Part shown: one piece after another, positions 4,547-41,700 of the stretch
Numbering within the stretch: the stretch's first letter is position 1
How the letters are laid out: each line of letters starts with the position of its first letter
Source: Liopterus haemorrhoidalis
Lineage: Eukaryota; Arthropoda; Insecta; Coleoptera; Dytiscidae
NCBI GenBank assembly: GCA_963971575.1
Contig: OZ020611.1
Location: forward strand, 57,445,381-57,509,380
Direction: 5' to 3'
DNA length: 64,000 nt
Translations under genes and position numbers: made by a program
Notes under the pieces: model-generated
What the model saw: the letters and a program-made list of their open reading frames with translations, nothing else
The model's database searches: none
Told to the model about the DNA's origin: nothing

Positions 4547-4585
4547 TAAAAAAATTGATGTGAAGTGTGAATATTCACACATTTC

Positions 4586-5480
4586 AGGGTTTCGCAGGTA
4601 TATAATAAGTGAAGGCGGTATGCTGAGTGTGTAGGACAAATTTTACTTTGTAGTAATCACGACAAAATGAACGATATTTTTAAAATAATTTATCGTCTGT
4701 TAATCATATAATAAGATAATTATTAAATTTACGCTCTTAAAAATTAAATACAACATTTGTCAAAATATAACTAGAATTTTTACAAAATAATTTCAACATA
4801 ATAAAAATGCAAAAAAAAAAACAGAAAAAATAAAATTCACTCAGTACTGGAACTCGAAACCCTTCGTTTACCAGCGAGTTTTAGCTTACGACACCAGTGC
4901 TCTAACCAATAACGCCATCATACGCCTTACAATGTGAGTGTCTTACATTGGTATAACTTTTGTACTTTGTGAACTAAAAACCACAAAAAATGCGTTATTT
5001 TCCGAAAACATAATCTGATCAAAAATTCCTGTTGTACTATTTCGGTTCACACCAATATACATTACTTAGAATTTTTTTAGATTTTTAGTTTAAACCATCT
5101 GGGCTACAGGTGTGGGACAAAATTTTTTTTGCACAATTTTGGCAAAAATCGCATCAAAATAATTTATTTTTCAAAAATAAAAATTTGATCGTTAATCCAC
5201 GTACTAAGAGCTTTCATTTGATACCCTACTCATAATTTAAAAAAAATATTTTTGTTTTCGATGAGCACATATTTGTTTATATTTTTAGGGGGGTATGTTT
5301 TTTAGATGTTTTAGTATTTTTCCTATGTGCGGGTCAAAGAGTTGTATAAGCATGCCAAATTTCAACTTTCTAGGTTTAGCCGTTTGGCTACAATTTTTAC
5401 CGAACAGACAGACAGACAGACAGACAGACAGACGACAAAATGACGGTATAAGGGTTTTTTGGTCATACCTACAAAACCCT
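4586..5480. mobile_element. TIR repeat, AGGGTTTCGCAGGTA family, copy 1
   Basis: It is bounded by AGGGTTTCGCAGGTA and the inverse TACCTACAAAACCCT. It carries a tRNA-like block (4838-4925, minus) and a (CAGA)n run at 5404-5432 followed by GACGACAAAATGACGGTATA. Related copies lie in both palindrome arms (24610-25612 and 28915-29923), and a partial copy starts at 54195. No transposase is visible. No target duplication stands out, so the superfamily is open. Confidence 0.65.
4838..4925 (-). repeat. tRNA-like module inside the AGGGTTTCGCAGG repeat
   Basis: On the minus strand a block resembles a tRNA. An A-box-like TGGTTAGAGCACTGG is followed at roughly tRNA spacing by a B-box-like GGGTTTCGAGTTCCAG. 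Acceptor-stem pairing is not convincing, so it is probably a tRNA-derived SINE-type segment, not a working tRNA gene. The copies in the palindrome arms carry a different tRNA-like sequence at the same position. Confidence 0.45.
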
Positions 5481-5543
5481 AAAAATCAGATCTATCTACA
5501 TATGAAGAAAATCATAGTTACAACACAAGAAATAAAGGTAACA

Positions 5544-9000: not shown

Positions 9001-11680
9001 CCCCTAAAGGGTAAAAAGGGGTAATATGTGATTTCAAGGATTGTTTAACATTTTTTATGACCAATAAGATATCTGCTTGGTTTTTGCTTACAAAAACTAC
9101 CCATGCAAATACCGAAAAAACAGTTTTTGGATTTTGTCTTAATCAACCTCTTAAGGGGTGGATCTACAATCGGGATGAATTATACATCCCGTCGCATTTC
9201 CTGTGTTCGTTTAGATGCAACGTTACTTTTTGGCACATAGGATTTTTTTTTTAATATCTCGAAATGATTTTGATATATATTTTTTTTAATTTCACCCCTT
9301 AAAGGTGAAAAGGGGTGAAATGTGATTTCAGTAATTCCTTAATTCTTTTAGGACCAATAAGATATCGACTTGGTGTTTGCTTGCAAAAATTATCCATACA
9401 AATGCCGAAAAACTTATTTCAGGATTACGTCCTAATCAACCCCTAAAGGGGTGGATCTACAATAGGGGTAGATTATACATCGCGTTGTATTTCCTGTGTC
9501 TTTTTAAAATGTCTCGAAATGGTTTTAACAGTTTTTTACCTTTAACAAATATCACCCCAAAAGGGTGAAAAGAGGGAATTGTGATTTCAAGGACGCCTTA
9601 ATATCTTCTCGGATCAATAAGATATAGACTTGGTTTTTGCTTATAAAGATAACCCATACAAATGCCGAAAAATGTATTTCAGGATTTTATCTTAATCAAC
9701 TCCTAATCAACAAAGGGGTGAATCTTCATTCGGGGTGAATTTTAGAACCCTTTGTATTTCCAGCGGTTGTTGAGTTATAACATTCCATTTTGGCATATAC
9801 GTATTCACAGTTTGACAGTTTTCTTTCACTCCTAAAGGATAAATTAGTATTTTTTGGTTAAAAATAAAAAATTCATTTGAGAGTACATTTTTCAGTATGA
9901 AGTAAGAACCCACTAAGAAAGGATTTTTTCAAGTTGGACCCCTATCTGGTGAAAAGGAGTAAAATGTTTTTTCACGGGTTCCTCAATGTCTCTTAGGACA
10001 GATCAGATATCGACTAGATTTTTTGTTACAAAGGTTACCCATACACAAGTTTAAAAACAAACTGCAGATTTTATGCCAATGAGACCATCAATATACCGTA
10101 GCGAAGCACGGGTTTTCAGCTAGTATTAATGATGACTGAGCAAGTGAGAGTGCGTGGGAGAAATTTTTTAGGGATCGGGATTTTCTGGATTATTCGTTTT
10201 TCAGTAAATGGGGTAGAGTCTTAGATGGTATAAGGAGGTATAAGGTCTAATAAAGTGTTGGATAGGGCACTAAGGTCATTATTTAAAAGGTTTTTACAAT
10301 GTTTTTTCATGTAAATCGCCTCTAGCATGTCTAAATTTTTGTCACTGGCCGCTTTCACTAAAATAACATTATTAATATTGAAATTGTGACCAGTATCTAA
10401 TTTGTGACTTGCTAGAGCCGATTTTTCCCAATTATTGTTTTTAATGTTGTACATGTGTTCCTTAAATCGAATGTTAACATTTCTACACTGTTTGGGTCTT
10501 CCAAGATGAACCGATACCCACAAAATTTGTTCGTTCACGAAGCGCATCCAAGAAAATGATGGCTTGTTTCGTTAGTTAGAATAAATAAAACAATAAATAA
10601 TAATATTTTAAATATTGTTCTACGTTACAATGAGCTGATGGTTCAGTAGCCATCTTGACAACGTATGTTCTGAAGTGATAAAACTATATAATTGTAGATA
10701 TTGTATTTGATTGACATATAATGGCTATATTTCACTCGGATTATTACAAGCCTCACCTACGGCTCGAGTGGTAAATTCATCCTCGTGAAATATAGCCTCA
10801 GTTATATGCTTGTTAAATAAAATACTATTCAAATAGACACTTCCCCTATTTTGCAAGACATCGGAGTGAGACAAGAAGGATTTCTTTCACCACTTCTTTT
10901 CAACGTGTACATGGACAACCTGAGCAACCTGTTGAATAAGGAGAAGATTGGCTGTGTGGTAGCCACATTTGTACTAACCACATTTCTTATGCGGATGATA
11001 TGATAGTCCTTGCACCATCCCTAGCTGGTCTGAGAAAATTCTTGGCTATATGCGAGAATTACGCGATGGAGCACGGCTTAATATACAACGTCAACAAAAC
11101 CGAGTATAACGTGTTCCAGTCAAAAGGTAAAAAATATGCTGTGTCGAGTGTGTGCATCAATGGTGAAAGTGTGAAAAACGTCTCTTCTGTGTGTTATCTT
11201 GGTCACTTTATCAATGATGATCTCAGTAACGCAGCTGACATCGACAGGCAATGTCGCTCTGTTTCTGTGAAAGCTAACATGCTAAATCATAGATTCTCAA
11301 AATGCAGCGGTAGTATGTATACTTCGGCACTCTGGGTACATCACACGAAAAGTTATCTTCGTAAACTTATTATTTGCTACAACAATGCATTTGAAGTAAT
11401 CTTATCGTTTATCAAAGCATGTTTGTTATATTTATAATTTTTTGTTCTCTGTTAACTGTATATTCTGTTTTCTGTTTCCGTTATGCATTTAGTGGATTTT
11501 TCTTATAAATATGTGTTACTTTTGGCTCTTGAGCCGTTAAATAAATATATTATTATTATTATTATTATTATTATTTCAGCCTTGTCCCTTTTGAAACAAC
11601 TCCAGGAAAATAAGTCTAATATAAAAGTACTTACCAATAGCGACGAGAAATAAAACAATTAACACTTGTAGAGTAGCCAT
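6079..11680 (-). CDS. Secreted coiled-coil protein gene, 5' two coding exons (partial)
   Basis: Coding exon 1 is 11680-11635: ATG followed by MATLQVLIVLFLVAI, a typical signal peptide, ending in phase 1 at a GTAAGT donor. Coding exon 2 is 6363-6079. It is preceded by TTGTTTTCCAG, enters in the matching phase (codon GTT, then EPYLIRQPPPTK) and ends in phase 1 at a GTAACG donor. The joined product has about 110 residues: signal peptide, a short proline-rich stretch, then about 65 residues rich in Q, E, L and N (ENQNIQQSVSEMQ, TKDLDTENLKLQIENNELR) with coiled-coil character, and an acidic end. No later exon is recognisable to the left, so the gene runs off the window. The 5.3-kb intron is packed with transposons. 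I do not recognise the family. The function is unknown; a secreted or luminal protein is inferred from the leader. Confidence 0.72.
6832..10123 (+). mobile_element. Helitron-like element 1 carrying a 290-bp tandem array
   Basis: The left end is TCTATATATATAAAAGGC followed by a (TGAC)n run. The right end is a small hairpin (CCGT..ACGG around AGCGAAGC) followed by TTTTCAGCTAG. A TC start, a subterminal 3' hairpin and a CTAG end are Helitron-like. The interior is about ten tandem units. No Rep/helicase coding is present, so it is non-autonomous. It sits inside a Penelope-like element. Copies 2 and 3 lie at 17648-18444 and 18445-21970. Confidence 0.65.
7000..9860. repeat. About ten tandem units of about 290 bp
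   Basis: The marker CCCCTAAAGGGTGAAAAGGGG recurs near 7003, 7289, 7579, 7870, 8160, 8420, 8709, 9000, 9294 and 9552, so the period is mostly 286-294, with one unit shortened to about 260. Each unit also has a second CCCCTAAAGGGG palindrome roughly mid-unit, next to the words ATCGGGGTGAATTATACA. Short open frames recur in each unit only because the sequence repeats; the period is not a multiple of three. Confidence 0.9.
10221..10547 (-). pseudogene. Penelope-like GIY-YIG endonuclease C-terminal fragment
   Basis: The 108-residue frame has GRPKQCRNVNIRFKEH, the conserved Arg-x3-His block of GIY-YIG nucleases (usually RxxEH), followed by SALASHKLDTGHNFN (the second conserved His-rich block of Penelope endonucleases) and an end of the type LLNNDLSALSNTLLDLIPP. 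In active elements this domain nicks DNA for target-primed reverse transcription. The expected GIY and YIG motifs and the upstream RT are absent; the first residues do not match the family, so the 5' part is truncated or frameshifted. Confidence 0.75.
10829..11575 (+). pseudogene. 5'-truncated non-LTR retrotransposon, RT 3' part
   Basis: The fragment begins near the RT block GVRQ.G.LSPLLFNVYMDN and carries a YADDM-equivalent (ATGCGGATGATATGAT near 10990) one frame away. A frame with LAPSLAGLRKFLAICENYAM and VCYLGHFINDDL then runs to 11437. It ends with an (ATT)n tail at 11548-11575. The DD catalytic pair is present, but frameshifts near 10970 and 11340 and the missing 5' half make it dead. 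It lies in the intron of the secreted-protein gene, opposite to that gene. Confidence 0.85.
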
Positions 11681-15563: not shown

Positions 15564-16970
15564 ACATATATAATTAGCTACCGTGTGTTAGTGATTTCGT
15601 AACACTGTGACGTCATTTTTCCTAAGGTTCTCGTGATTGGCTAACTGGGAAACAGGGTGTTCTCAGTTTGACTTGATTGACAGGTATTTTGCAGATTTAT
15701 TCTCTAAGAATCTACGAATATAATTATATATAGAAATTTGTAGGATTTCGTAGGCATAAACAAGAAACTCTAGATACTCCTATATCCTTTGACTGATATC
15801 AACAATATTTTTCAGATTTATTGTCTAAGAAACTGCGAATAAAATAACAAATAGAAATGTCTACGGTTTCGTAAGCATAAACAAGAAACTATATACACTG
15901 CTATATCCTTTGACCAATATATATATATAATACTTTGCAGATTTATTTTCTTAGAATCTACAAATATAATTATTTACAGAAATGTCTAGGGTTTCGTAGG
16001 AATAACCAAGAAACTCTAGACACTGATATATCCTTTGACCGATATGAACAATATTTTGCAGATTTATTCTCTAAGTATCTACGAATATAATTACATACAT
16101 AAATGTCTAGGGTTTCGTAGGTATAAACAAGAGACTCCTATATCCTTTGACCGATATGAACAATATTTTGCAGATTTATTCTCTAAGAATCTGCGGATAA
16201 AATAACATACAGAAATATCTAGGGTTTTGTAGATATAAATAAGAAACTCTAGACACTCCTATATTCTTTGATTGATATGAAAAATATTTTGCAAATTTAT
16301 TCTCTAAAAATCTGCGGATAAAACATCGTATAGAAATGTCTAGAGTTTCGTAGGCATAAACGAGAAACTGTAGACACTTCCATATTCTTTGATCGATATG
16401 AAAAATATTTTGCAGATTTATTATTTAAAAATCTGCGGATAAAATAACCTATAGAAATGTGTAGGGTTTCGTGGGCATAAACAAGAAACCCTAGGATACT
16501 CCTATATCCTTTGACCGATATGAACAGTATTTTGCAGATTTATTTTCTAAGAACCTACGAATATAATTATATACATAAAAGTCTATGGTTTCGTAGACAT
16601 ATAAACAAGAGACTCCTATATTCTTTGACCGATATGAACAATATTTTGCACAATTATTCTCTAAGAATCTACAAATATAATTACATACGTAAATGTCTAG
16701 GGTTTTGTAGGCATAAACAAGAGACTCTCGATACTCCTGTTTTCTTTGACCAATATGAACAATATTTTGCACATTTATTCTCTAAGAAACTGCGGATAAA
16801 ATTTTATATATAAATGTTTTGGGTTTCGTAGGCATAAACGAGAAACTCTAGACAAGCCTATATTCTTTAACCGATATGAACAATATTTTGCAGATTTATT
16901 CTCTAAGTATCTACGAATATAATTACATATATAAATGTTTTGGGTTTCGTAGGCATAAAATAACGTCTCA
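15564..16970 (+). mobile_element. Repeat element carrying an 11-copy 120-bp array
   Basis: It begins with ATATATAATTAGCTACCG and a segment containing TTCTCGTGATTGGCTAACTGG, homologous to the start of the short element at 17062-17337. From about 15665 it holds eleven tandem units. It lacks the hairpin/CTAG end that closes the short relative, so it appears 3'-truncated. No coding. Confidence 0.55.
15665..16960. repeat. Tandem array of about 120 bp, eleven units
   Basis: The marker GCAGATTTATTCTCTAAG recurs near 15691, 15813, 15938, 16059, 16170, 16293, 16413, 16533, 16649, 16768 and 16890, giving periods of 111-125. Units also share GGGTTTCGTAGGCATAAAC and CCTATATCCTTTGACCGATA. Units differ by several substitutions and short deletions, so the array is not recent. 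Confidence 0.9.
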
Positions 16971-17647: not shown

Positions 17648-18444
17648 CTACAAATGCCAAAAAACTTATTTCAGGATTTCGTCCTAATCAACCCCTAAAG
17701 GGGTGATTCTACAAACGGGGTAGATTATACATCGCGTCGTATTTCCTGTGTTTGTTGAGTTATAACGTTTCTTTTTGGCACATAGCTGTCTTTTTAAAAT
17801 ATCTCGAAATGGTTTTAACCTTTAACAAATATCACCCCTAAAGGGTGAAAAGAGGGAATTGTGATTTCAAGGACGCCTTAATATCTTCTAGGATCAATAA
17901 GATATAGACTTGGTTTTTGCTTATAAAGATTACCCATACAAGTGCCGAAAAATGTATTTCAGGATTTTATCTTAATCAACCCCTAAAGGGGTGAATCTAC
18001 ATTCGGGGTGAATTATAGAACCCTTTGTATATCCAGCGGTTGTTGAGTTATAACATTCCATTTTGGCATATATGTGTTTTGACAGTTTTCTTTCACTCCT
18101 AAAGAGTAAATTAGTATTTTTTTGTTAGAAATAAAAAATTACGGGAGTACATTTTTAAAATAAAAATATATAAAAATAAAATAAAAATAAAAAATTATAG
18201 GAGAGTACATTTTTCAGTATGACGTAAGAACCTACTATGAAAGGATTTTTTCAAGTTCGACCCCTATCTGGTGAAAAGGAGTAAACTGTTTTTTCACGGA
18301 TTCCTCAATATCTCTTAGGACAGATGAGATATCGATTAGATTTTTTGTTACAAAGGTACCCATACACAAGTTCAAAAACAAACTGCGGATTTTATGCCAA
18401 TGAGACCATCAATATACCGTAGCGAAGCACGGGTTTTCAGCTAG
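17648..18444 (+). mobile_element. Helitron-like element 2, 5'-truncated
   Basis: It holds about two and a half of the 290-bp units and the full 3' end (CCGTAGCGAAGCACGGG hairpin, TTTTCAGCTAG). Its CTAG end abuts the 5' end of element 3 with no more than one base between, a head-to-tail insertion. Near 18150 it has a small local AAATAAAAATA expansion. Confidence 0.65.
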
Positions 18445-20007
18445 TATATATATAAAAGGCAATGTCCTGACTGACTGACTGACTCATTCACTCATCACCG
18501 CCCAACTTAAACCTCTGGGTCTAGAAAATTGAAATTTGGAGAGTATATTCCCTCCATGACATAAGCACCCATTAAGAAGGGATTTTTCGAAATTTAATCC
18601 CCAAGGGGCGAAAAGGGGTGAAATGTGATTTCACGGATTCCTTAATATCTCTTATGGGCGATGGGATATCGACTTAGTTTTTAGTTATAAAGATTACCCA
18701 TGCAAATGCCGAAAAACTTATTTCGGGATTTTCTCCTAATGAACCCCTAAAGGGGTGAATCTACAATTGGGGTGAATTATACATCCCGTCGTATTTTCTG
18801 TGTTTGTTGAGTTACAAAATTTATTTTTGGCACATAAGTATCTTTTTAAAATATCTCGAAATGGTATTGACAGTTTTTTTAAAATTTCATCCTTAAAGGG
18901 TGAAAAGGGGTGAAATGAGAATTCAAGGATTCCTTAATATCTCTTAGGACCAATAAGATACAGACTTGGTTTTTGCTTACAAAAGATTACTCATACAAAT
19001 GCTGAAAAACTTATTTCACGATTTTGTCCTAATCAACCCCTAAAGGGCTGAATCTACAAACGGGGTGAGTTATACATCGTGTCGTATTTCCTGTGTTTGT
19101 TGTGTTATAAAATTTCATTTTGGCACATAAGTGTATTTTTATAATATCTCGAAATGCTATTGACAGTTTTTTAAAATTGCATCCCTAAAGAGTGAAAAGG
19201 GGTGAAATGTGAATTCAAGGATTCCTTAATATCTCTTAGGACCAATAAAATACCGACTTGGTTTTTCTTTACAAACATTACTCATACAAATGCTGAAAAA
19301 CTTATTTCAGTATTTTGTCGTAATCAACCCCTAAAGGGGTGAATCTACAAACGGGGTGAATTATAGATCCCGTCGTATTTCCTGTGTTTGTTGAGTTATA
19401 AAATTTCTTTTTGGCACGTAAGTGTCTTTTTAAAATATCTCAAAATGGTATTGACAGTTTTTTAAATTTGCATCCCTAAAGGGTGAAAAGGGGGGAAATG
19501 TGAATTCGAGGATTCCTTAATATATTTTAGGACCAATAAGATACCGACTTGGTTTTTGCTTCCAAAGATTGCTCATACAAATGCCGGAAAACTTATTTCA
19601 GGATTTTGTCCTAATCAACCCCTAAAAGGGTGAATCTACAAACTGGGTGAATTATACATGCCGTCGTATTTCCTGAGATTGTTGTGTTATAAAATATCTA
19701 ATTGACTTTAAAATATCTCGAAATAATATTGACAGTGTTTTAAAATTGCATCCCTTAAGGGTGAAAAGAGGTGAAATGTGAATTGAAGGATTTCTTAATA
19801 TCTCCTAGGACCAATAAGATATCGACTTGGTTTTTTTCTTATAAAGATTACTCATATAAATGCCGAAAAACTTATTTCAGGATTTTGTCCTAATCACACC
19901 CTTAAAGGATGAATCTACATTCGGACTTAATTATACATCCTGTCGTATTTGCTGTATTTGTTGAGTCATAACATTTCTATTTAGCTGATGGTTGTCTTTT
20001 TAAAATA

Positions 20008-20840: not shown

Positions 20841-22083
20841 TATTTTGGCACATAGGTGCCTTTTTTAAATATCTCGAAATAATTTTGACAATTTTTTTAA
20901 ATTTCATCCTTAAAGGGGTAAATGGGTATTTTTTATTCGATAGAACATTTCTTGGACATAGATACATGAAATTCGCAAAATATATTCCACTAAGAAGAGA
21001 TTTTTCGAAAGTTGACTCTTAAGGGGGTGAAATATGAATGCAATATCTCTTAGAACCAATCAGACCAATATTAAAACAGAAATTCAGGATTTTGCCCGAA
21101 TCAACCCCTAAAGGGATGAATTTGGGTTGAATTATTGAAACCTTTGTATTCCTATTTTTGATAACATTTCATTTTGGTATATAGGTTTCTATTTAAAATA
21201 TTTAGTAAGCGTTTTGACAGTTTTTTGACCCACTAATATGAAACTTTCCCAAATTCGATCCCTAAGGGGGTGAAAAGGCCTGACATGTGATTCCTCAATA
21301 TCTCTTAGGACCATTGAGATATTGACTTGGTTTTTGCTTGCAAAGGTTACACACACAAATGTTTAAGAACTAAATTCAGGATTTTGTTCTAATCTACCCT
21401 TAAAGGGATATATTTATTTTCAATAAATTTGTTTGCAACAGCGTATTGCAAATTTGTCTGGAAAGATTTTAAACTATATAACATAAGCTATATTATAAAA
21501 AACTATAAATACACATGTAAAATATATATTAACGAATTTTAGGATTTAATATTGCTTTAAGTTACCTATAAAAATTTAAACTTATTTTAAAATTTTACCC
21601 TAATCAATCCCTAAAAGGCTGAATCTGCATTCAGGGTACAGAAGAACCCTTCATATTTCTTTCGTTTGTTATAACATTCCTTTTTGTCATATATATGTCT
21701 TTTTTAAATATCTAAAAAGTTTTAAACAGTTTTTTTTTACTCAGTATGACGTAACAACCAACTAAAAAAGGATTTTTTGAAGTTTGACCTCTGTGGTGAA
21801 AAAGAGTAAAATGTTTTTTCACGGATTCTTCAATATCTTTTAGGACAAATGAGATATCGACTAGGTTTTTGCTTACAAAGGTTACCCATACACATGTTTA
21901 AAAACATACTGAGGATTTTACACTAATGAGATCGTCAATATACCGTAGCGAAGCACGGGTGTTCAGCTAGTTTTCATATAGGGCTCAAAGTTGTCGTTAG
22001 ATTTCTTTTCTTTTTCAACCTTTTCTGGCATGGGACCTCCCAAAATAACTTAAATGTTGTCTGCGGCCCCTATATATATATAA

Positions 22084-22130
<47 letters not shown>

Positions 22131-22136
<6 letters not shown>

Positions 22137-22470
22137 TTACCGCTTATGCAAGCCAATTCTATGTACTCAATGGACGGTGTCAAACCAAAATTGACGTTTT
22201 CAGACCAGGGGAATGGTCTGAAAACGTTTTTCATGTTTTTTGGAGCTCTTGCACCCTGATTATATAGCAGCGATGACAGAGAAAATTTCACAAATGGTCT
22301 GAATACGAGGGTAGATCGTATATTTATATACAAATTTAGTTCACTGATTTGTCGTGAAGAGCGCGCACCAGTAGTTTTTGTATATAACTTTTTATACAAA
22401 AAATGTACGATTCCGACTTTGTCAGACCAGTACAATTCAGTCGACGTTGTCAAGCCTTAAATCTGGCAAC
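22131..22470. repeat. Outer subterminal region of left arm, motif-rich
   Basis: It carries repeated 14-mers of form GAC-N4-TCA-RRCC: GACGGTGTCAAACC (22173), GACGTTTTCAGACC (22193), GACTTTGTCAGACC (22415) and GACGTTGTCAAGCC (22443), plus inverted partial copies near 22214 and 22297. CGTTTTCAGACCA, a six-base loop and its exact inverse form a hairpin. The mirrored region is about 32040-32383. Confidence 0.7.
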
Positions 22471-23124
22471 ACTGTATAGAATGAGCTAGATAAACATTCC
22501 AGTCATGATAATTTTAGTTCATTGTAAGAACTTAAATATTTTCTTTCAATTTGTCTTACAGAAAAACTTTAAACTCAAATTTAGTTTTGGCAGACTCGTA
22601 GATACTTGAAAACAATGCATATAACCGATTTGTATCAAATTTGTTCAAATTAAAATTTTGGTATTTGCGCCATGAAATTCTTCTTTTTTTTTCAATTTAG
22701 AAATAATTACATTTTTATAGTTTATAGATTTTTTAAAGCGTGCTGAATGTTACTGCTTAAAATGAGACGTTAAATTAATTTAATATTTTTATTAGAATCC
22801 CAAATAAATGTACATTGTAATAAGTTTGAACTTTGTTGATATATTTCACAGAAAATTATTCTAATACGGACATCAATGTCCATAATTTATTCTTAATTCC
22901 AAAGAAGAACACAAAAGGTTTCAAATTACAAATAACTCGTTTGAACAATTACTTTTCTTAATTGTAAAAAATAAAAATAATTGTAAAAAACAAAAGTTCC
23001 CATTTCATTTTGAGTATTGAACATTTATGTGTACGTTTAAGAGCGTACTGTACCTGGGTTACGCTCAACGGATACGTGCATTTGAAAGGGTCAAAGAATT
23101 TGAACCAAATGTTATCGGATCAAT

Positions 23125-24165
23125 TTGATTTTTTTTTTAATTTGAAGGTAAAGATTGGCTCCGTTGGATTTAAGAGTTAAAATTTGGTTTTATTTTTAAT
23201 TTTCAGTTTTACAATGTCCTAAACTTTGTCTAACTTCACATCACTGTTCCTCCGTAAATCAATAACAATTGCAAATTCCATAGCTAGAATCCTATAGACT
23301 GTACTTTTATCTTTAAAATGAGCCCTTATTTATGAAAATTAATTAATATTTAGCACCAATTCTTTGGCCCACACCGAAACACTATTTATATAAAATACTG
23401 GCATTTACAAGCATCGAGAGATGTATCCATCTGGTAGCGTGGTTTTAAACTAATCTAATCATAGTAGAGGGAGTCTTAAGCTCCGCCTTCGTTTCCTACA
23501 CATATCTTTAAATTCGGTTGAAATGGGTAACAGAAGATCTTTGGAATAAAACAGTTTGTGACGTCAAATTTACCTGTTTTATTTTAGACTTTCCGTGGTA
23601 GAATACAAATTCATATTGGCACAAAAAAATGGTCCCAAAAATTAAGTTAAATAATTATGGCCGGCTTCTGAAAGCTTAGTTAACTATAACCAAATGGTCA
23701 GAACATGGTTGTTATGGTAACGTATGGGATTGTTATACTGTAATCGAGTTTAACCAAAAGGTTAAATCAACCCCTAAAGGGGTGAATCTATGATTATTAA
23801 CATAATTTTTTGATGATAAAAAAAAAAAAACTATTATTTCTACAAAATTATCTGTAAAATCAGAATTGGTAATAAATATTAATCACTTTTCACATACAAG
23901 AGCTTATTTTAAAGATAAAATTACAATAAAGAGTGGTTAAGTGTTAACATTTGTAATTTTTATTCATTTACTGAGTAACAGTCATGTGAAATTAAAAAAG
24001 TATAGCACTGTAAAATTGAAAATTAAAAATAAATCAAAATACAAATTTAAACTTATTAAAATATTTAATTTATTTACTTTATTTTTTATTAAAATTTATT
24101 TACTTATTTACTTATTAAAATTTTGATATTTTCTTTCATATCTTGAAATTAAAAAAAAAAAATCA
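23125..24165. repeat. Diverged foldback repeat inside the left arm
   Basis: About 260-300 bases at 23125-23390 recur inverted at about 23875-24165: AGCCCTTATTTATG opposes AGAGCTTATTTTAAAG-type text, TTATCTTTAAAATGAGC opposes its inverse, and both outer ends carry TTTGATT with a poly-T/poly-A run. The unit looks like an old foldback transposon. Its mirror in the right arm is 30355-31410. Confidence 0.65.
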
Positions 24166-24609
24166 AATTGATTCGAATATATTTAATCTATATTTTATGA
24201 TTCCCAAAAATACAGGTTGATTTATAAATATTAGCACTTTTCCCTCTCCCTGTAAGCTACTTCCACTTTGGTCACTCCCCCAATGACGTAATACGACTTC
24301 TCGCCACCGCACCCCGCGTGCAACGATGGACTTTGGAGGTGGCTACATTCGCCTCTTGACTTCAAATTTTAAGATGCCATATCATAGGCTCGAAACCTGG
24401 TTTCACTCTGTCATGACATTAAATTACGAGAAAATATATATAGCTCTTGTTTTTTGAATGTCAAATAAATAAACCCATAGAAAAAAAGCATATCAGACAG
24501 ACAGAGAGATTTTTTTTGTGAATTTTGTCTTACATTCACTTGGAACATGTAGAAACGAAAAATGGGTACCAAGAAAAAATTATGTGAAGTGTGAATTTTC
24601 ACACGTTTC

Positions 24610-25612
24610 AGGGTTTCGCAGGTATTTAGTGAATGATGATTATTTGGGAAGCCAAAACAAATTTTATGTTAAAATATTTTTTTATTAATTTTAATTCGAA
24701 TGCCTAATACCATTATTTGGGTTTCTAAAAATTTGCAGTATTTTTTTTTATATACGAAGGTTCATTATTATTTTGAAAATTGCGCCTACGGCTTCCATTG
24801 GTTGTTTAAGTCATAAACTCCGCCCCTCTGATTTCGTATACATTCAAACATAGAATTAAATTATAATATCAACACTTCCCACTGGTTATTAAATTTACGG
24901 TTTTAAAAATTAAATGCAACATTTGCCAAAATATAACTAGAATTTTGACAAAATAATTTAAACAAAATAAAAATGCAAAAAAAAAACAGAAAAAATAAAA
25001 ATTGACGGGAGGTGAACAGTAGTTTGCAACTTACGAAGCGAGAACGTTACCACTGATCTACGAACGTTCACTCCTTTACTGTGTTAAATAGCGGATTAAA
25101 TATTTTACATATTTTAGTTAAAAACACAAAAAAATGCGTTATTTTCCGAAAACATAATCTGATCAAAAATTCCTGTTTTACTATTCCGGTTCACACCAAT
25201 GTACATTACTTAGAATTTTTTCAGATTTTTAGTTTAAACCATCTGGGCTACAGGGTGTGGGACAAAATTTTGCACAATTCTCGCAAAAATCGCGTCAAAA
25301 TAATTTATTTTGCAAAAATAAAATTTTGATCGTTAATTCAGGTTTCAAGGGCTTTCGTTTGATACCATACACAGAATTGTAAAAAAATATTATTTTTTTT
25401 CGATGAGCATATATTTGCTTATATTTTTAGGGGAATATGTTTTTTAGATGTTTTAGTATTTTTCCTATGTGGGGTCAAAGAGTTGTATAAGCATGTCATA
25501 TTTCAACTCTCTAGGTTTAGCCGTTTGGCTACAATTTTTACCGAACAGACAGACAGACAGACGACAAAATGACAGACGACAAAATGACGGTATAAGGGTT
25601 TTACAAAACCCT
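24610..25612. mobile_element. AGGGTTTCGCAGG-family repeat in left arm
   Basis: It starts AGGGTTTCGCAGGTATTTAG and ends GGGTTTTACAAAACCCT. It includes the words AATGCGTTATTTTCCGAAAA and the sequence around a (CAGA)n run as in copy 1. A tRNA-like block lies at 25010-25083 on the minus strand. Confidence 0.65.
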
Positions 25613-26984
25613 AAAAAAGAACAGATTTAACCTCCAATTTTATTTATATACGTAAATTTTCCACAACTTTGTAAATTTCACTTAGAAGATAAAAGGTTGT
25701 TAAATGATGCTTGTTGTTACGTTTCACAGATTAGTTCACTGACTGTAGTTTAGGCTCACCGTAAATTTGAGAATTGCCAGAGCCGAAACTGCACTCAAAA
25801 AAAAAAAAAAAAAAAAACAGTGAGATATAACAAAAAGGTCTAATTAAACAACCTTTTACAAATATTATTTTTTTCTCGTTTATGATCCACCTGACACGCA
25901 TACTTCTTTTTGGTGTATAGAATTTCGTTTATCGGTGACTCTAAGGATCTTGCTTAATTTTACTTATCACAAGCAAGCTGTGGCTGCCAGCAATAAATCG
26001 TTTGTGCTTGCCGTTGACCGCTCGCAAGTAGATAATAATTAAATTGTTAAAATAATTTGTGTAAAAAATATTTAGACAAATTACGGGCTCTGCTTAGCAA
26101 CCGGCTATAAGCTGTACGGGCATTTCTGTGTGCGCTAAAAAATAGACGTAATCCTGTCTATATTACTCCTACATGTACACAGATTGAAAATGTGGTCACA
26201 AAACTTGAAATCAAGAGATCTAGACTCATCTCGCGCTGTCGCGTCAATGATGATGATGACTTCTCTTTATTTTTCATATGAGAAATATAATTGTAAATAT
26301 TACCTTTTATTATCACGACAGGAATAGTTCACTGAATTTATACAATAATAAATGTCCTTAATAACAAAATACGTAAATAATACGCCAATATAATTAAAAC
26401 CAAGATACAATTTGTAAAAATATATTTTAAGGCGCAGTACAACCTAGTGGCTGTGCTTTTCGGGTCAGGTATGCGACAGTATTGACTAATATTTCTTCAT
26501 TTTATTGAGTAACAAAATTATTTAATTTGAAGTGTAATCATTTTCAAAAACGCGTGAAAAAAACAGCACAGGAGGATCCCCCGAATATATTTTATGTATA
26601 AAATAATAATCGGCATATATTAAATGTAATTACTAACTTATGATCAAAAAGTCTTTCAGTCTCAGATGGCTTATGTATTATAAATCGCAGATCTTCTTTT
26701 GTTAATTGAGTATTCATAATGTACGTGTCATTTGTCGAAAAAAAGGAGATTTTCTTATATAAAACATAGCCGCCCGAAGAAAGGACATTTTGATCCACAT
26801 GTTACATTGCAAATACGTATATGAATTATCAACAAGTGTTTTTTCACATATAATATTATTATTATTTATTTAAAATGCACTCTTGAGTGTAAACATATTC
26901 CTGAACAGTAGGACTGAATGAGTCGGTTTGAATGTTTTCAACTTTACAAATCATATTATACACTATGATAAAATTGGCAACGTC

Positions 26985-27242
26985 GCAAGGCCTGACAATG
27001 TCGATTGAACAACACTATTTTATACAGGTGATACTGAAAAAGCGGTTCCATATACTGGGTCTAATAATGTTTATTAAACATAGCGAATTTTTTTTTTGAG
27101 ATTTTCTTACCCCTCTCAGTGTGCCCTGAGAGTTATAACTGGTAGATTCTATATCTGGCATATATACACGCGAAATCCTTTAAATAACGGTAGGTCTTAG
27201 GTCGCCTGTTGGATATCATTGGTCTGACCACGTCGGTTGTAT

Positions 27243-27302
<60 letters not shown>

Positions 27303-27560
27303 TGATACAACCGACGTGGTCAGACCAATGATATCCAACAGGCGACCTAAGACCTACCGTTATTTAAAGGATTTCGCGTGTATATATGCCAGATATAGAA
27401 TCTACCAGTTATAACTCTCAGGGCACACTGAGAGGGGTAAGAAAATCTCAAAAAAAAAAATTCGCTATGTTTAATAAACATTATTAGACCCAGTATATGG
27501 AACCGCTTTTTCAGTATCACCTGTATAAAATAGTGTTGTTCAATCGACATTGTCAGGCCT
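26985..27560. repeat. Palindrome centre and inner subterminal regions
   Basis: A (TA)n core at 27246-27300 is flanked by exact inverse sequences. GACGTGGTCAGACC (27313 and, inverted, 27221) and GACATTGTCAGGCC (27545 and, inverted, 26989) match the motif found at the outer ends of the arms. This suggests that each 5.1-kb arm is itself an element with related ends. Confidence 0.75.
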
Positions 27561-28914
27561 TGCGACGTTGCCAATTTTATCATAGTGTATAATATGGTTT
27601 GTAAAGTTGAAAACATTCAAACCGACTCATTCAGTCCTACTGTTCAGGAGTATGTTTACACTCAAGAGTGCATTTTAAATAAAAAATAATAATATTATAT
27701 GTGAAAAATCACTTGTTGGTAATTCATATACGTATTTGCAATGTAACATGTGGATCAAAATGTCCTTTCTTCGGGCGGCTATGTTTTATATAAGAAAATC
27801 TCCTTTTTTTTTTGACAAATGACACGTGCATTATGAATACTCAATTAACAAAAGAAGATCTGCGATTTATAATACATAAGCCATCTGAGACTGAAAGACT
27901 TTTTGATCATAAGTTAGTAATTACATTTAATATATGCCGATTATTATTTTATACATAAAATATATTCGGGGGATCCTCCTGTGCTGTTTTTTTCACGCGT
28001 TTTTGAAAATGATTACACTTCCAATTAAATAATTTTGTTACTCAATAAAATGAAGAAATATTAGTCAATACTGTCGCATACCTGACCCGAAAAGCACAGC
28101 CACTAGGTTGTACTGCGCATTAAAATATATTTTTACAAATTGTATCTTGGTTTTAATTATATTGGCGTATTATTTACGTATTTTGTTATTAAGGACATTT
28201 ATTACTGTATAAATTCAGTAAACTATTACTGTCGTGATAATAAAAGGTAATATTTACAATTATATTTCTCATATGAAAAATAAAGAGAAGTCATCATCAT
28301 CATTGACGCGACAGCGCGAGATGAGTCTAGATCTCTTGATTTCAAGTTTTGTGACCACATTTTCAATCTGTGTACATGTAGGAGTAATATAGACAGGATT
28401 ACGTCTATTTTTTAGCGCACAGCTTATAGCCGGTTGCTAAGCAGAGCCCGTAATTTGTCTAAATATTTTTTACACAAATTATTTTAACAATTTAATTATT
28501 ATCGACTTGCGAGCGGTCAACGGCAAGCACAAAAGATTTATTGCTGGCAGCTTGTGATAAGTAAAATTAAGCAAGATCGTTAGAATCACCGATAAACGAA
28601 ATTCTATACACCAAAAAGAAGTATGCGTGTCAGGTGGATCATAAACGAGAAAAAAATAATATTTGTAAAAGGTTGTTTAATTAGACCTTTTTGTTATATC
28701 ACTGTTTTTTTGTTTTTTTTTTTTTTTTTTGAGTGCAGTTTCGGCTCTGGCAATTCTCAAATTTACGGTGAGCCGAAACTACAGTCAGTGAACTAATCTG
28801 TGAAACGTAACAACAAGCATCATTTAACAACCTTTTATCTTCTAAGTGAAATTTACAAAGTTGTGGAAAATTTACATATATAAATAAAATTGGAGGTTAA
28901 ATCTGTTCTTTTTT

Positions 28915-28949
28915 AGGGTTTTGTAAAACCCTTATACCGTCATTTTGTC

Positions 28950-28983
<34 letters not shown>

Positions 28984-29923
28984 TCGGTAAAAATTGTAGC
29001 CAAACGGCTAAACCTAGAGAGTTGAAATTTGACATGCTTATACAACTCTTTGACCCGCACATAGGAAAAATACTAAAACATCTAAAAAACATATTCCCCC
29101 AAATATATATAAGCAAATATATGCTCATCGAAAAAAAAAAAAAAAAAATTTTACAATTCTGTGTATGGTATCAAATGAAAGCCCTTGAAACCTGAATTAA
29201 CGATCAAAATTTTATTTTTGCAAAATAAATTATTTTGATGCGATTTTTGCGAGAATTGTGTAAAATTTTGTCCCACACCCTGTAGCCCAGATGGTTTAAA
29301 CTAAAAATCTGAAAAAATTCTAAGTAATGTACATTGGTGTGAACCGGAATAGTAAAACAGGAATTTTTGATCAGATTATGTTTTCGGAAAATAACGCATT
29401 TTTTGTGTTTTTAACTAAAATATGTAAAATATTTAATCCGCTATTTAACACAGTAAAGGAGTGAACGTTCGTAGATCAGTGGTAACGTTCTCGCTTCTTA
29501 AGTTGCAAACTACTGTTCAACTCCCGTCAATTTTTATTTTTTCCGTTTTTTTTTTGCATTTTTATTTTGTTTAAATTATTTTGTCAAAATTCTAGTTATA
29601 TTTTGGCAAATGTTGCATTTAATTTTTAAAAGCGTAAATTTAATAACCAGTGGGAAGTGTTGATATTATAATTTAATTCTATGTTTGAATGTATACGAAA
29701 TCAGAGGGGCGGAGTTTATAACATAAACAACCAATGGAAGCCGTAGGCGCAATTTTCAAAATATTAATGAACCTTGCTATATAAAAAAAAAATACTGCAA
29801 ATTTTTAGAAACCCAAATAATGGTATTAGGCATTCGAATTAAAATTAATAAAAAAATATTTTAACATAAAATTTGTTTTGGCTTCCCAAATAATCATCAT
29901 TCACTAAATACCTGCGAAACCCT
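28915..29923. mobile_element. AGGGTTTCGCAGG-family repeat in right arm
   Basis: Mirror copy of the left-arm element, starting AGGGTTTTGTAAAACCC and ending TACCTGCGAAACCCT. Its (GTCT)n run at 28953-28981 is longer than the left-arm equivalent, showing independent change of the arms. Confidence 0.65.
29461..29533 (+). repeat. tRNA-like module in right arm (mirror at 25010-25083)
   Basis: An A-box-like TAGATCAGTGGTAACG and a B-box-like GTTCAACTCCCG are spaced as in tRNA genes. No clean acceptor stem or CCA-ready end, so it is read as a tRNA-derived module and not a tRNA gene. It occupies the position that holds a different tRNA-like block in the copy at 4586-5480. Confidence 0.45.
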
Positions 29924-30354
29924 GAAACGTGTGAAAATTCACACTTCACATAATTTTTTCTTGGTACCCATTTTTCGTTTCTACATGTTCCAAGTGAATG
30001 TAAGACAAAATTCACAAAAAAAATCTCTCTGTCTGTCTGATATGCTTTTTTTCTATGGGTTTATTTATCTGACATTCAAAAAACAAGAGCTATATATATT
30101 TTCTCGTAATTTAATGTCATGACAGAGTGATACCAGGTTTCGAGCCTATGATATAGCATCTTAAAATTTGAAGTTAAGAGGCGAATGTAGCCACCTCCAA
30201 AGTCCATCGTTGCACGCGGGGTGCGGTGGCGAGAAGTCGTATTACGTCATTGGGGGAGTGACCAAAGTGGAAGTAGCTTACAGGGAGAGGGAAAAGTGCT
30301 AATATTTATAAATCAACCTGTATTTTTGGGAATCATAAAATATAGATTAAATAT

Positions 30355-31410
30355 ATTCGAATCAATTTGATTTTTTTTTTTAATATCAAGATATGAAAGA
30401 AAATATCAAAATTTTAATAAGTAAATAAGTAAATAAATTTAAATAAAAAATAAATTAAATATTTTAATAAGTTTAAATTTGTATTTTGATTTATTTTTAA
30501 TTTTCAATTTTACAGTGCTATACTTTTTTCAATTTCACATGACTGTTACTCAGTAAATGAATAAAAATTACAAATGTTAACACTTAACCACTCTATATTG
30601 TAATTTTATCTTTAAAATAAGCTCTTGTATGTGAAAAGTGATTAATATTTATTACCAATTCTGATTTTACAGATAATTTTGTAGAAATAATAGTTTTTTT
30701 TTTATCATCAAAAAATTATGATAATAATCATAGATTCACTTTAGGGGTTGATTTATCCTTTTGGTTAAACTCGATTACAGTATAACAATCCCATACGTTA
30801 CCATAACAACCATGTTCTGACCATTTGGTTATAGTTAACTAAGCTTTCAGAAGCCGGCCATAATTATTTAACTTAATTTTTGGGACCATTTTTTTGTGTC
30901 AATATGAATTTGTATTCTACCACGGAAAGTCTAAAATAAAACAGGTAAATTTGACGTCACAAACTGTTTTATTCCAAAGATCTTCTGTTACCCATTTCAA
31001 CCGAATTCAAAGATATGTGTAGGAAACGAAGGCGGAGCTTAAGACTCCCTCTACTATGATTAGATTAGTTTAAAACCACGCTACCAGATGGATACATCTC
31101 TCGATGCTTGTAAATGCCAGTATTTCATATAAATAGTGTTTCGGTGTGGGCCAAAGAATTGGTGCTAAATATTAATTAATTTTCATAAATAAGGGCTCAT
31201 TTTAAAGATAAAAGTACAATCTATAGGATTCTAGCTATGGAATTTGCAATTGTTATTGATTTACGGAGGAACAGTGATGTGAAGTTAGACAAAGTTTAGG
31301 ACATTGTAAACCTGAAAATTAAAAATAAAACCTAATTTTAACTCTTAAATCCAACGGAGCCAATGTTTATCTTCAAATTAAAAAAAAAAATCAAATTGAT
31401 CCGACAACAT
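30355..31410. repeat. Diverged foldback repeat inside the right arm
   Basis: 30355-30665 and 31140-31410 are inverted relatives (GAATTGGTAATAAATATTAA opposes GAATTGGTGCTAAATATTAA; outer ends both TCAAATTGAT next to poly-A/T). It is the same structure as 23125-24165 in the left arm. Confidence 0.65.
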
Positions 31411-32377
31411 TTGGTTCAAATTCTTAACCCAGGTAACCCAGGTAACCCAGCGTAACCCAGGTACAGTACGCTCTTAAACGTACACATAAATGTTCAATAC
31501 TCAAAATGAAATGGGAACTTTTGTTTTTTACAATTATTTTTATTTTTTACAATTAAGAAAAGTAATTGTTCAAACGAGTTATTTGTAATTTGAAACCTTT
31601 TGTGTTCTTCTTTGGAATTAAGAATAAATTATGGACATTGATGTCCGTATTAGAATAATTTTCTGTGAAATATATGAACAAAGTTCAAACTTATTAAAAT
31701 GTACATTTATTTGGGATTCTAATAAAAATATTAAATAAATTTAACGTCTCATTTGAAGCCGTAACATTCAGCACGCTTTAAAAAATCTATAAACTATAAA
31801 AATGTAATTATTTCTAAATTGGAAAAAAAAGGAGAATTTCATGGTGCAAATACCAAAATTTTAATTTGAACAAATTTGATACAAATCGGTTATATGCATT
31901 GTTTTCAAGTATCTACGAGTCTGCCAAAACTAAATTTGAGTTTAAAGTTTTTCTGTAAGACAAATTGAAAGAAAATATTTAAGTTCTTACAATGAACTAA
32001 AATTATCATGACTGGAATGTTTATCTAGCTCATTCTATACAGTGTTGCCAGATTTAAGGCTTGACAACGTCGACTGAATTGTGCTGGTCTGACAAAGTCG
32101 GAATCGTACATTTTTTGTATAAAAAGTTATATACAAAAACTACTGGCGCGCGCTCTTCACGACAAATCAGTGAACTAAATTTGTATATAAATATACGATC
32201 TACCCTCGTATTCAGACCATTTGTGAAATTTTCTCTGTCATCGCTGCTATATAATCAGGGTGTAAGAGCTCCAAAAAACATGAAAAACGTTTTCAGACCA
32301 TTCCCCTGGTCTGAAAACGTCAATTTTGGTTTGACACCGTCCATTGAGTACATAGAATTGGCTTGCATAAGCGGTAA

Positions 32378-32383
<6 letters not shown>

Positions 32384-32422
<39 letters not shown>
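32384..32422. repeat. (TA)n at right palindrome edge
   Basis: TA dinucleotide run directly outside the right arm; a second TA run lies at 32550-32592. Confidence 0.9.
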
Positions 32423-32423
<1 letters not shown>

Positions 32424-32560
32424 CGAAGTTTTCCGAAACTATTCCAAAGCATATTATATTTTTAAAATTCATTTTAGAGTCATAAAATGCAAAATTCTTA
32501 ATTTTGACATTTTAAAATAAAATTTTTAAAATAATTGGTTTTAAAACAAAATATATATAC

Positions 32561-32593
<33 letters not shown>

Positions 32594-32648
32594 AAGTTCA
32601 ACACAAATGATTGCAGTGATTCCAACAGTACAAAAATAAGAAACTAGT

Positions 32649-33391
32649 ATAATCCGTCTCAATTTGTAATTCGAAACTAGACTGGTTACTTTGGTGACTG
32701 TTGTGGTGAAAACAGACTTTGGCGTATCCGTGTAAACCATGGGTGTCAAACTCATATCAGCCCCGGGCCATTTTTCTAACAAATAAAATTCACGCGGGCC
32801 GCACGATACGTATTTATATTATTACTCATTCTGTTTTTCATTTTCTACCATTTTTCTGAATATTTATTTAAAGGAAGTAAAGAAATAACAATTAAATTTT
32901 GCCAAAATATTTCCTTTATCGAACAACAAAAAGTTCAGCGTATTGGTAATGTAAACTGCAGTTGCACCTATAGAAAAGTGCTATTTGAAAGCTCTGCTTA
33001 CGAGTATATTATTTGGAATCACGGGGAATTACTGATCTACCGACTATCGCACGGCCTTGGCTAACTGCCATAGTTACTGTCTGACTATTGGTTTTCCGCC
33101 CTTTGCCAAAGTCTTGACGCCGCGGCCCGAACAGAATCTGTCACGAGGTGTTTCCGCTAAAATAATTTTTTATACTGTATAAGACATATAGTATAAAAAT
33201 TTATTATAGTATAAGAAGTCGTTGCGGGCCGCAAAAATGCAACAATTGGGCCTCATGCGGCCCGCGAACCGCCAGTTTGACACCCTTGGTGTAAACCAAT
33301 ACTATGATAATATTATAAATGTATTGTCAATATACAACATAAAAAATGAACTTCCCTGTTAGTTTCGTATTACAAAATGAGACAGATAATA
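32649..33391. mobile_element. Short TIR MITE (GTCTCAATTTGTAAT family), copy A, with hAT inside
   Basis: The ends GTCTCAATTTGTAATTCGAA and the inverse of GTCTCATTTTGTAATACGAA bound about 190 bases once the hAT at 32738-33288 is removed. Copy B at 51749-51933 is the same unit, inverted and without the hAT. Non-coding. Confidence 0.8.
32738..33288. mobile_element. hAT MITE, GGGTGTCAAACTCA family
   Basis: Ends are CATGGGTGTCAAACTCA and the inverse CAGTTTGACACCCTTG. The 8-bp duplication GTGTAAAC is perfect (32730-32737, 33289-33296). GCGGGCCGCA-type blocks lie near both ends, usual in this hAT group. The paralogous empty site at about 51847 has one copy of the 8-mer (GTGTGAAC), confirming insertion. 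No transposase. Confidence 0.93.
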
Positions 33392-33579
33392 CTACCAATA
33401 ATTTTTATTTTAAACATTGTAATCACGATTTTTTTAATCAAAGATGTATTATAACAAAATTGTGGTACAATTTCAATTATTTTCTTTATTTTTATTACAT
33501 AAAATGGATATAATATATAAATTTAAATGAAACTTAACCTTAAATATTCAAACCGCTGACAAAGAAGGTTATTAAATGA

Positions 33580-38700: not shown

Positions 38701-41700
38701 TTGAATAAAGCATATTGAATCTAAACGAGTATTTGTTTGTAATATTTATTTTAAATTTGTACTTTTTTTTAAAATATATTTTGACTTGTGTAAACATTTT
38801 CTGTAATGTATTCAACACTAATAAATATTATTATTATTATTATTATTATAATTATATCATGTTTCACTGTGACATTTTGGAAACTTCTGTTTAACATATA
38901 ATATTTTATTTTAGTACATTTTTTTTTTTTTTACTATATATTATAATTACAATTTTTTTACTAGAAATGATTATTATGGTGGTGCATGGGCTTCGTTTAA
39001 CTTGGAAGGAATAGAAAAATACATTATCAATCATCCGGAGGCCTTGAAAGAACCAGAAGAAAATATTAAGCAATTGGTACATGAGGGAGAACACTGTTTG
39101 GAGTTGGGAAATAAAGTTTGTGGTGTATCGAATGTTAGTCAACAATGGAACATTCCAAAGTAAGTTCCAAATAAACATTACAATAATAGTTTTCCTGAAT
39201 GCAGATGAAAGAACTGTATAGTCAGTTATGTTTTTATGTGGTAGATACATTCCACAGAACACTGCAGAAAAAGAAATTCACACTAAAGACATTGTTACGT
39301 TATAAAATTAAAGATGAGGAGTAATATTCAAAACGTAATTTGTTACACGAAATTTAAAATTGAGATATTTTTGTAAGATGATTAATTTTGTAATATAAGC
39401 TATTCTAGGGTGACCATTTTCTTAAGAAGGCAATGCGGGACTGAGCAAAAAAAGGTCGTCACTTCCCAAATATAAGTGAAGAGCAAATAAAAAGGTCCTC
39501 ACCTCCCAAATCCAAGTGAAGAGCAAAAAAAAGGTCCTCACCTCCCAAATTAGAAATGTTAGAATGCGGGACATTTGCGGGACGCATCTTAATGCGGGAC
39601 ACCCAATCAAAATGCGGGACAGTCCCGCAAAAACCGGGACGAATGGTCACCCTAAGCTATTCCAAACTTTAGGCGGAACTAGATTTTGAAATCTAGTAAT
39701 TTTTATCTATTAAATCGGACTTTTGGTCATTTTGTTTGAGCTTTGTAAGTCATACTCACATTGCAAATTCTAGATTAAATTTACTGTCATTCTAAAATGT
39801 CCTTTTCATTACATTTTGGTTTTTTGTGGAATTTTTAATAAAAATTTCCCATTTATTTATTTTTTTGTCTTCAAAATATGTAAAAATATATTATATTTTA
39901 TAACCAATGTCATTCGTTTCCATGGTTTCACTGTTGGGATTTTAAATTTTCACATACCAACATGAAACATGAAAGTTTACCTTAATATCCTAATACAACG
40001 GAACTTAATATCTCTAAAATAAACTGTTATAACTAGTTATTATATGAAATAACATGAAATAACTTAAATTTTAATTTTTCAATTAAATGTTTTATAAATA
40101 ACAAGAGTTTAATAGTTTATTTTGCTTATTTATAAAGTAATAGTTTTTTTTTTCTTTCTAAATAGTCAAATAGTTTATTTTAGAGATATTTTGTTTCTTT
40201 TTTTATTGTTTTCAAAGCTTGCTACGTTCAACTTTGTAAAACTTATGTTGATTATTATTTTGTAAATAAATGGTCGCCATTTTGAAATGGTTAACATAAA
40301 AATATGATTTTTTGGTGTCATTGTAAAGTAAATTTAATGTACTTTTAGGAAAAAATATAAAATTATCGATTCCCTATGCTAGATCAAAAGTTGACATCAT
40401 TTCCGGTGAAACCGGAAGTGCCTCAGAATTCTTATAGTAACCTTTAGATGAGCCTTTTTGTCTAGTTTAACTTTTGTTCTGAAGATTTTTTGTATCTTTA
40501 CAAATAAAGGAGATTTTCGGGGTGCCCCGTTTTAAACAAACACCCTGTATATGCGACAAAGCCCTAAAATGTTAGGTTTTATAATTCGCACTATTAAAAG
40601 TATTAATTCTATAAACGCTTTTAAAAATCTTGACTTTTCGTAAATCTCTAGCATCTTAAACTATTCGTCCATTATCTGGAATAGTTTTTCAAACAAATAC
40701 ATTTTCAAACTTTAAAAAATTCAGAAAAAGCCATTATGTAGGTATTTCTTTTTAAATGTAATGCCCAATACGATAACTACTACGATTCTTGTCTCAGAAT
40801 AAATATTTTACCGCTTCAAAAACGTCGTATTTTGTCTGACATGTTGATGCTTTACCGAATAATTAATAACACCACTTTTTCTATTGAACTCCTACATCTT
40901 ATCGAGATACAATACCAGGTACAAACTTATTCCATCAAACCAGTTCAAACACAAATTCATTCACTAACTAGCCCATCATCAGAATTTCTCTTTTTTTCTT
41001 ACATAGATATTATAAACTGTTCCAAACAGAAATTCGGGAAATTATGTATTAATAAATTAAATACTATAATTGATATGCTTCTGTTTTAAAAATAAAACTA
41101 TTAAAAAAAAAAAATTATTGTGTCTTTTAGAATGTCTGTATATTTAATTTCAAGTAAAATAATTAAATCTAAATTCGAAAATCATATACTACATGTGATT
41201 ATTTGATATGCAGGGAAATTATAAATCCAATTGAAGAAGGAACAACTGAAACCCAAGATGTTACTGCATCTGAAACGGAAACGGAAAGTGATAAGAAAGA
41301 AAAATGTGATGGAGAAAAGCCGGTGGAACAAGCAGAAAGTACTGAACAAAAGCCTAAAGAAGAAGCAATAGTTCCTGAAATAAATAAAGATGATTTAGTT
41401 TGGACGCAAGATAAGATAATGAAGCAAAGTCGAAAATTTAATTTGGATATTGCACCTAAAGTAAGTTTTTAAAATATACATAAGATACATTGACAATATT
41501 AGTATTAGCATACTAGCAGACCCCTTGCCAACAACGTTGGCAAACTGATATAAAAATGAATATAGGCAGGAATCAATTATTAAAATTTACATGATTTTGC
41601 GTGTATTAACAAAACAAAAACGTTTCTTGATTATACCTAGGAAATCCTAAAAAACTGCTTAATGCGTGTCGTTTAAAAATTAGTATCGGATCGGAGACGG

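What the first reader, a model, noticed from the sequence alone, without database searches (positions are those of the whole stretch)
22083..32422. A 10-kb near-perfect palindrome with a (TA)n centre and (TA)n outer edges
Two 5.1-kb arms pair end to end with only about 33 bases of net indel and a few percent difference. The arms have independent indels and different microsatellite lengths, so they are not identical copies of one read. (TA)n at both outer ends and in the centre suggests that the 5.1-kb unit was placed twice, back to back, into a TA-rich target, or was inverted-duplicated by replication. Long palindromes of this size are rare outside sex chromosomes and amplicons.
Basis: partly seen in the sequence, partly recalled or inferred. 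Interest (0 to 1): 0.85.

Follow-up and report, generated by a model that had tools for sequence, protein, structure and literature searches.

The report
Head-to-head pair of TA-flanked transposons
The 10-kb palindrome is real in this sequence and is best read as two related copies of one non-coding 5.1-kb transposon-like element lying head to head, with runs of TA between and around them: an unusual but explicable repeat arrangement rather than a new kind of system.

Summary
Confirmed: 22094-32420 pairs with its own reverse complement at 97.1%. Between the (TA)n tracts the arms are 5113 and 5080 bp; they differ by 93 substitutions in 5065 ungapped columns (19 in one 36-column patch) and 18 indels. 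The outer flanks do not match each other, and changes fall on both arms (7 left, 9 right, 1 unclear), so a fold-back read or joined haplotypes is unlikely, though no reads were available. New point: a 19-bp motif lies near BOTH ends of each arm, its six strong copies per arm all pointing outward, with nothing as strong elsewhere in the 64 kb. Each arm thus looks like a complete non-coding transposon-like unit, not half of a foldback. The palindrome is two copies head to head at one (TA)n tract, by two insertions (or a local hop) or, almost as plausibly, by template switching between (TA)n tracts. The family is unclassified: the tips lack a significant terminal inverted repeat and a HINE-type tip hairpin. 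The host genome search did not complete, so copy number and target preference are untested.

The parts
22088..22131 (.). left outer (TA)n tract, 44 bp perfect; imperfect TA-rich stretch from 22071
22132..27244 (+). left arm: one 5.1-kb non-coding element copy, outer end at 22132, inner end at 27244
22168..22206 (-). two end-motif copies (22168 and 22188), pointing outward, outer end of left arm; the first lies 36 bp from the (TA)n
22194..22227 (.). 14-bp-stem hairpin at the outer end, made of the motif copy at 22188 and a weaker inverted copy at 22215 (position carried over from the fold of the right-arm copy)
   Evidence: fold done on 32285-32327: -14.7 kcal/mol as DNA, 0 of 200 shuffles as good
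22410..22456 (-). second cluster of two end-motif copies (22410 and 22438), pointing outward
23169..24060 (.). MITE-like element inside the arm: imperfect internal inverted repeat (61%), present in both arms
24574..25617 (+). nested element carrying a (GACA)n tract, related to 4549-5485 (82% over 24886-25617); at the same place in both arms
26989..27007 (+). end-motif copy, inner end of left arm, pointing outward from the arm (towards the centre)
27221..27239 (+). end-motif copy 5 bp from the central (TA)n, pointing outward from the arm
27245..27302 (.). central (TA)n tract, 58 bp with one interruption
27303..32382 (-). right arm: second 5.1-kb element copy, inverted; motif copies at 27308(-), 27541(-), 32058(+), 32086(+), 32308(+), 32328(+)
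32383..32420 (.). right outer (TA)n tract, 38 bp

Best explanation
Each 5.1-kb arm is one complete copy of a non-coding (non-autonomous) DNA-transposon-like element whose two ends both carry an outward-pointing 19-bp subterminal motif, presumably the binding site of a transposase supplied elsewhere. The element sits in (TA)n tracts. Two close relatives inserted in opposite orientation at the same (TA)n tract, most simply by a copy hopping into the (TA)n next to its sister, leaving element-(TA)n-element' head to head. Shown: the palindrome, the boundaries, the shared end motif, the shared nested elements. Inferred: mobility, target preference for (TA)n, transposase binding, and the two-insertion order of events.
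For: Both arms stop at (TA)n at both ends. A weight matrix built only from the four motif copies at the outer end of the left arm scores the two inner-end copies 25.3 and 25.9 bits; the best site outside the palindrome, on both strands of the 64 kb, scores 14.7 (35198). The reverse test (matrix from the two inner copies) ranks all four outer copies (18.0-23.6) above the best outside site (15.1). These six strong copies per arm all point outward. For the 19-bp consensus, hits inside the palindrome versus the other 53.7 kb are 10 and 0 at up to 4 mismatches, 12 and 1 at 5, 18 and 4 at 6. The outer flanks (about 3 kb each) do not match each other. Two nested elements sit at the same places in both arms, so the arms are close kin. 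Polarised changes are balanced: 7 left, 9 right, 1 unclear, in 726 columns. Nine ORFs of the palindrome (of the 33 ORFs of 60 aa or more that one search lists for 21500-33500) match no Pfam family at its curated cut-off.
Against: No other copy, single arm or empty site was seen: only this window could be examined, and apart from the nested elements it holds no third copy of the arm. The first 30 and 45 bases at the two ends are no more alike than shuffles (1209 and 1246 of 2000 as good), so there is no conventional terminal inverted repeat at the tips; longer end stretches are only weakly alike (60 bp 73, 100 bp 179, 300 bp 20 of 2000 shuffles as good; 500 bp 15 of 500). Two weaker motif-like sites at the outer end, 22215 and 22296 (plus strand), point inward. 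The motif consensus was first read by eye from both ends, and the copies put into the matrices were chosen with it, so the matrix tests are not blind. Inverted duplication by template switching predicts the same boundaries.
Confidence: 0.5

Rival explanations
1. One element copy was inverted-duplicated in place: a stalled fork switched strands in the self-complementary (TA)n at one end, copied the element backwards, and rejoined through (TA)n on the other side. No second transposition was needed.
For: (TA)n lies at all three junctions, is self-complementary, and could give the microhomology for both switches. The arms share nested elements at the same sites and are only 1.47% apart outside one patch. 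The right arm carries a short replaced patch opposite 23060-23100, with a 9-bp tandem repeat, the kind of scar template switching can leave.
Against: Needs two switches exactly at the element's two ends; (TA)n allows this but does not require it. No direct evidence.
Confidence: 0.32
2. A single foldback-type transposon with 5.1-kb terminal inverted repeats and almost no middle.
For: Overall shape: long arms, tiny centre.
Against: The inner ends carry the same outward end motif as the outer ends, which a foldback's centre need not have; the centre is plain (TA)n.
Confidence: 0.1
3. Assembly or library artefact: fold-back read, or two haplotypes joined in inverted orientation.
For: Artificial palindromes are known, for instance after whole-genome amplification (start of the abstract of PMC6218980, seen in the listing). 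No read data were available.
Against: The outer flanks do not match each other, the boundaries fall beside the end motifs, and the arms differ by 93 substitutions, with changes on both sides where an outgroup exists. I would expect an artefact to carry flanks into the palindrome or to give near-identical arms.
Confidence: 0.06

Closest known systems
Helentron-derived non-autonomous elements (HINE / DINE-1)
   Same: Non-coding; subterminal inverted motif placed asymmetrically (here 5 bp from one tip and 36 bp from the other; HINE about 2-4 nt and 38-60 bp, PMC4067079 section 5); lies in a simple AT-rich tract.
   Different: Several motif copies per end; (TA)n rather than T-rich flanks; the small hairpin near the tip is no better than chance, and the strong hairpin lies further in; 5.1 kb with nested elements.
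TIR DNA transposons with subterminal repeats and TA targets (Tc1/mariner-type; recalled)
   Same: Outward subterminal motif at both ends; TA-rich flanks.
   Different: No significant terminal inverted repeat at the tips; no recognised transposase in the nine ORFs tested; target duplication unreadable in (TA)n.
Mu killer of maize (partial inverted duplication of MuDR)
   Same: An inverted pair of transposon sequence that could yield hairpin RNA if read through (start of the abstract of PMC3440606, seen in the listing).
   Different: No evidence of transcription here; whole element-like arms rather than a partial gene.
Foldback elements (FB, Galileo; recalled)
   Same: Very long inverted arms.
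   Different: Arms here look like two-ended units with plain (TA)n between them.

Membership tests
Helentron / HINE | subterminal inverted repeats about 2-4 nt from the 5' tip and 38-60 bp from the 3' tip | tested here: inconclusive
   The outermost motif copies lie 5 and 36 bp from the two tips, close to but outside the ranges in PMC4067079; three further copies lie deeper at the outer end and one at the inner end.
Helentron / HINE | 5-10 bp palindrome about 8-35 bp from the 3' tip | tested here: not met
   Only a 4-bp stem GCTT/AAGC; as good in 427 of 2000 shuffles and 734 of 2000 random 36-mers of the window; fold z -0.69, 39 of 200 shuffles as good.
Helentron / HINE | T-rich target, no target-site change | tested here: inconclusive
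   Flanks are (TA)n; no empty site available.
Helentron / HINE | autonomous partner with Rep/helicase | not tested
   Host genome search unanswered.
TIR DNA transposon | terminal inverted repeats at the tips | tested here: not met
   First 30 and 45 bases at the two ends score as shuffles do (1209 and 1246 of 2000 as good); the shared motif is subterminal only.
TIR DNA transposon | target-site duplication | not testable with these tools
   Hidden in (TA)n tracts.
Foldback transposon | arms are terminal repeats of one element, not complete units | tested here: inconclusive
   Each arm has end motifs at both of its ends, which speaks against, but no single copy was seen.
Hairpin-RNA silencing locus (Mu killer type) | read-through transcript and small RNAs | not testable with these tools
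   No expression data.

The most novel reading that the evidence does not exclude
The element family targets (TA)n and, because each insertion leaves (TA)n at its own ends, repeatedly seeds head-to-head pairs, so that its own target rule manufactures long near-perfect palindromes, some of which could be read through into hairpin RNA that silences the family.
Probability: 0.1. Interest if true: 0.6.

Novelty: new member of a known kind. Interest (0 to 1): 0.35.

Why it matters
It turns a striking 10-kb palindrome into a testable transposon story: a non-coding element with clear end motifs, apparently tied to TA microsatellites, in a head-to-head pair whose arms now differ by about 1.5% in substitutions. 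If the pattern recurs in the genome it would give a simple route by which target preference creates palindromes.

Tried and rejected
Foldback element: not preferred, because the inner ends carry outward end motifs. Artefact: judged unlikely. RNA genes: no tRNA or tmRNA and no Rfam family at gathering score in the window. Coding content: nine ORFs of the palindrome gave no Pfam match at a curated cut-off; two weak ones (E 0.0076 and 0.036) were set aside. Copies elsewhere: left arm with edges (22083-27260) against the phage collection, no match; exact patterns from the inner end and the outer end in viral and prokaryote contigs, none, as I would expect for an animal genome. HINE-type tip hairpin: no better than chance; of four stretches folded only 32285-32327 beat its shuffles (the others: 39, 140 and 65 of 200 as good). 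Conventional terminal inverted repeat at the tips: not supported. Substitutions along the arm: no significant clustering outside the patch (chi-square p 0.11) and no significant deficit in the outermost 500 bp of both ends (8 in 1000 columns against 66 in 4029, p 0.086), so no clear sign of gene conversion. Literature: the searches (the last returned nothing) gave no paper that I recognised, from titles and abstract starts, as describing such a pair; this is no proof of absence.

Full report
What is there. BLAST of the window against itself finds one long inverted match, 22094-32420, at 97.1%. A global alignment of the arms gives 94 substitutions in 5126 ungapped columns and 18 indels of 63 bases in total. 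Restricted to 22132-27244 there are 93 in 5065, and 74 in 5029 (1.47%) when one replaced patch of 36 columns at 23060-23100 is left out. The arms, between the (TA)n tracts, are 5113 and 5080 bp. The centre is a 58-bp (TA)n tract with one interruption, and both outer ends are (TA)n.

Why it is probably not an artefact. The two flanks of about 3 kb outside the ends share no match, so the palindrome starts and stops sharply. A relative of the element nested in both arms lies at 4720-5485 and serves as an outgroup: of 17 positions that differ between the arms in 726 columns, 7 changed on the left, 9 on the right and 1 is unclear. Both arms have drifted, as two real sequences do. Read data were not available, so this remains an inference.

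What the arm is. Nine ORFs of the palindrome, out of the 33 of 60 aa or more listed for 21500-33500, match no Pfam family at its curated cut-off; I take the arm to be non-coding. Two older elements are nested in it and shared by both arms: an imperfect inverted repeat at about 23169-24060 and a (GACA)n-bearing element at about 24574-25617 that has a relative at 4549-5485. The most telling feature is a 19-bp motif. In the left arm its strong copies lie at 22168, 22188, 22410 and 22438 on the minus strand and at 26989 and 27221 on the plus strand, all pointing out of the arm; the right arm mirrors this. A weight matrix from the four outer copies scores the two inner ones at 25.3-25.9 bits while the best site outside the palindrome reaches 14.7; the reverse test puts the outer copies at 18.0-23.6 and the best outside site at 15.1. 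The motif was first read by eye from both ends and the copies were chosen with it, so the test is not blind, but the gap is large. An arm with the same outward signal at both ends is the anatomy of a whole transposon, not of half a foldback.

Against this reading. The very tips (first 30-45 bases) are not alike beyond chance, and longer end stretches only weakly so (15 of 500 shuffles as good for 500 bp). There is therefore no classical terminal inverted repeat. Two weaker motif-like sites, 22215 and 22296, point inward; the first forms, with the copy at 22188, a strong hairpin. No single copy or empty site has been seen.

How the pair arose. Two insertions into the same (TA)n tract, or one copy hopping into the (TA)n beside its parent, would produce the arrangement seen. 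So would a fork that switches strands in (TA)n twice, because (TA)n is self-complementary and lies at all three junctions. The shared nested elements show that the two arms are close kin and fit either. I give the insertion route 0.5 and the template-switch route 0.32.

What it resembles. The asymmetric placing of the motif, 5 bp from one tip and 36 bp from the other, recalls Helentron-derived HINE elements, whose subterminal repeats lie about 2-4 nt and 38-60 bp from the tips (PMC4067079: section 5 read, other passages seen). But the small hairpin expected near the 3' tip is no better than chance, and the flanks are (TA)n rather than T-rich, so I do not file it there. The strong hairpin lies further in (32285-32327, -14.7 kcal/mol, 0 of 200 shuffles as good). 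The class of the element stays open.

Verdict. The thing is most likely a head-to-head pair of an unclassified non-autonomous element in TA microsatellites of an animal-type genome (reverse-transcriptase ORFs and a helix-turn-helix ORF with a sub-threshold match to the Mos1 transposase HTH model lie in the window; the assignment to an animal is my inference). It is unusual in its size and symmetry, but of a known kind.

Noticed in passing
window 10070-10126, 18390-18450, 21920-21975: Three copies of a Helitron-like 3' end (CCGTAGCGAAGCACGGGT-TTCAGCTAGT); arrays of a 291-bp tandem repeat lie nearby at 6984-9499 and 18583-19982. The Helitron label is recalled.
   Followed up: partly
window 104-242, 39443-39550, 46974-47149: Similar 39-40 bp minisatellite units occur as three separate short arrays, the last inverted and close to a mariner-like helix-turn-helix ORF at 47220-47576.
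   Followed up: partly
window 15685-16959: Tandem array of a 121-bp unit, about 10.6 copies.
   Followed up: no
window 5404-5437, 25540-25590, 28946-28983, 58783-58865: (GTCT)n / (GACA)n tracts; the first three lie in the nested repeat element, the last (about 21 units) was not looked at. A MITE class with hitchhiking (GTCY)n microsatellites is named in the reference list of PMC4067079 (seen), possibly the same kind.
   Followed up: no
window 31425-31463: A 9-bp tandem repeat (TAACCCAGG) in the right arm only, where the left arm (about 23060-23100) has unrelated sequence: a local replacement, perhaps a template-switch scar.
   Followed up: partly
window 54156-54820, 62041-62402: Weak matches (58-60%) to the nested elements of the arms, at 24571-25240 and 23803-24156: probably older relatives of those nested elements.
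   Followed up: no
window 53726-54070: A short ORF on the minus strand that looks, from recall, like the last exon of a TFIP11/STIP-type splicing factor; no Pfam match.
   Followed up: no
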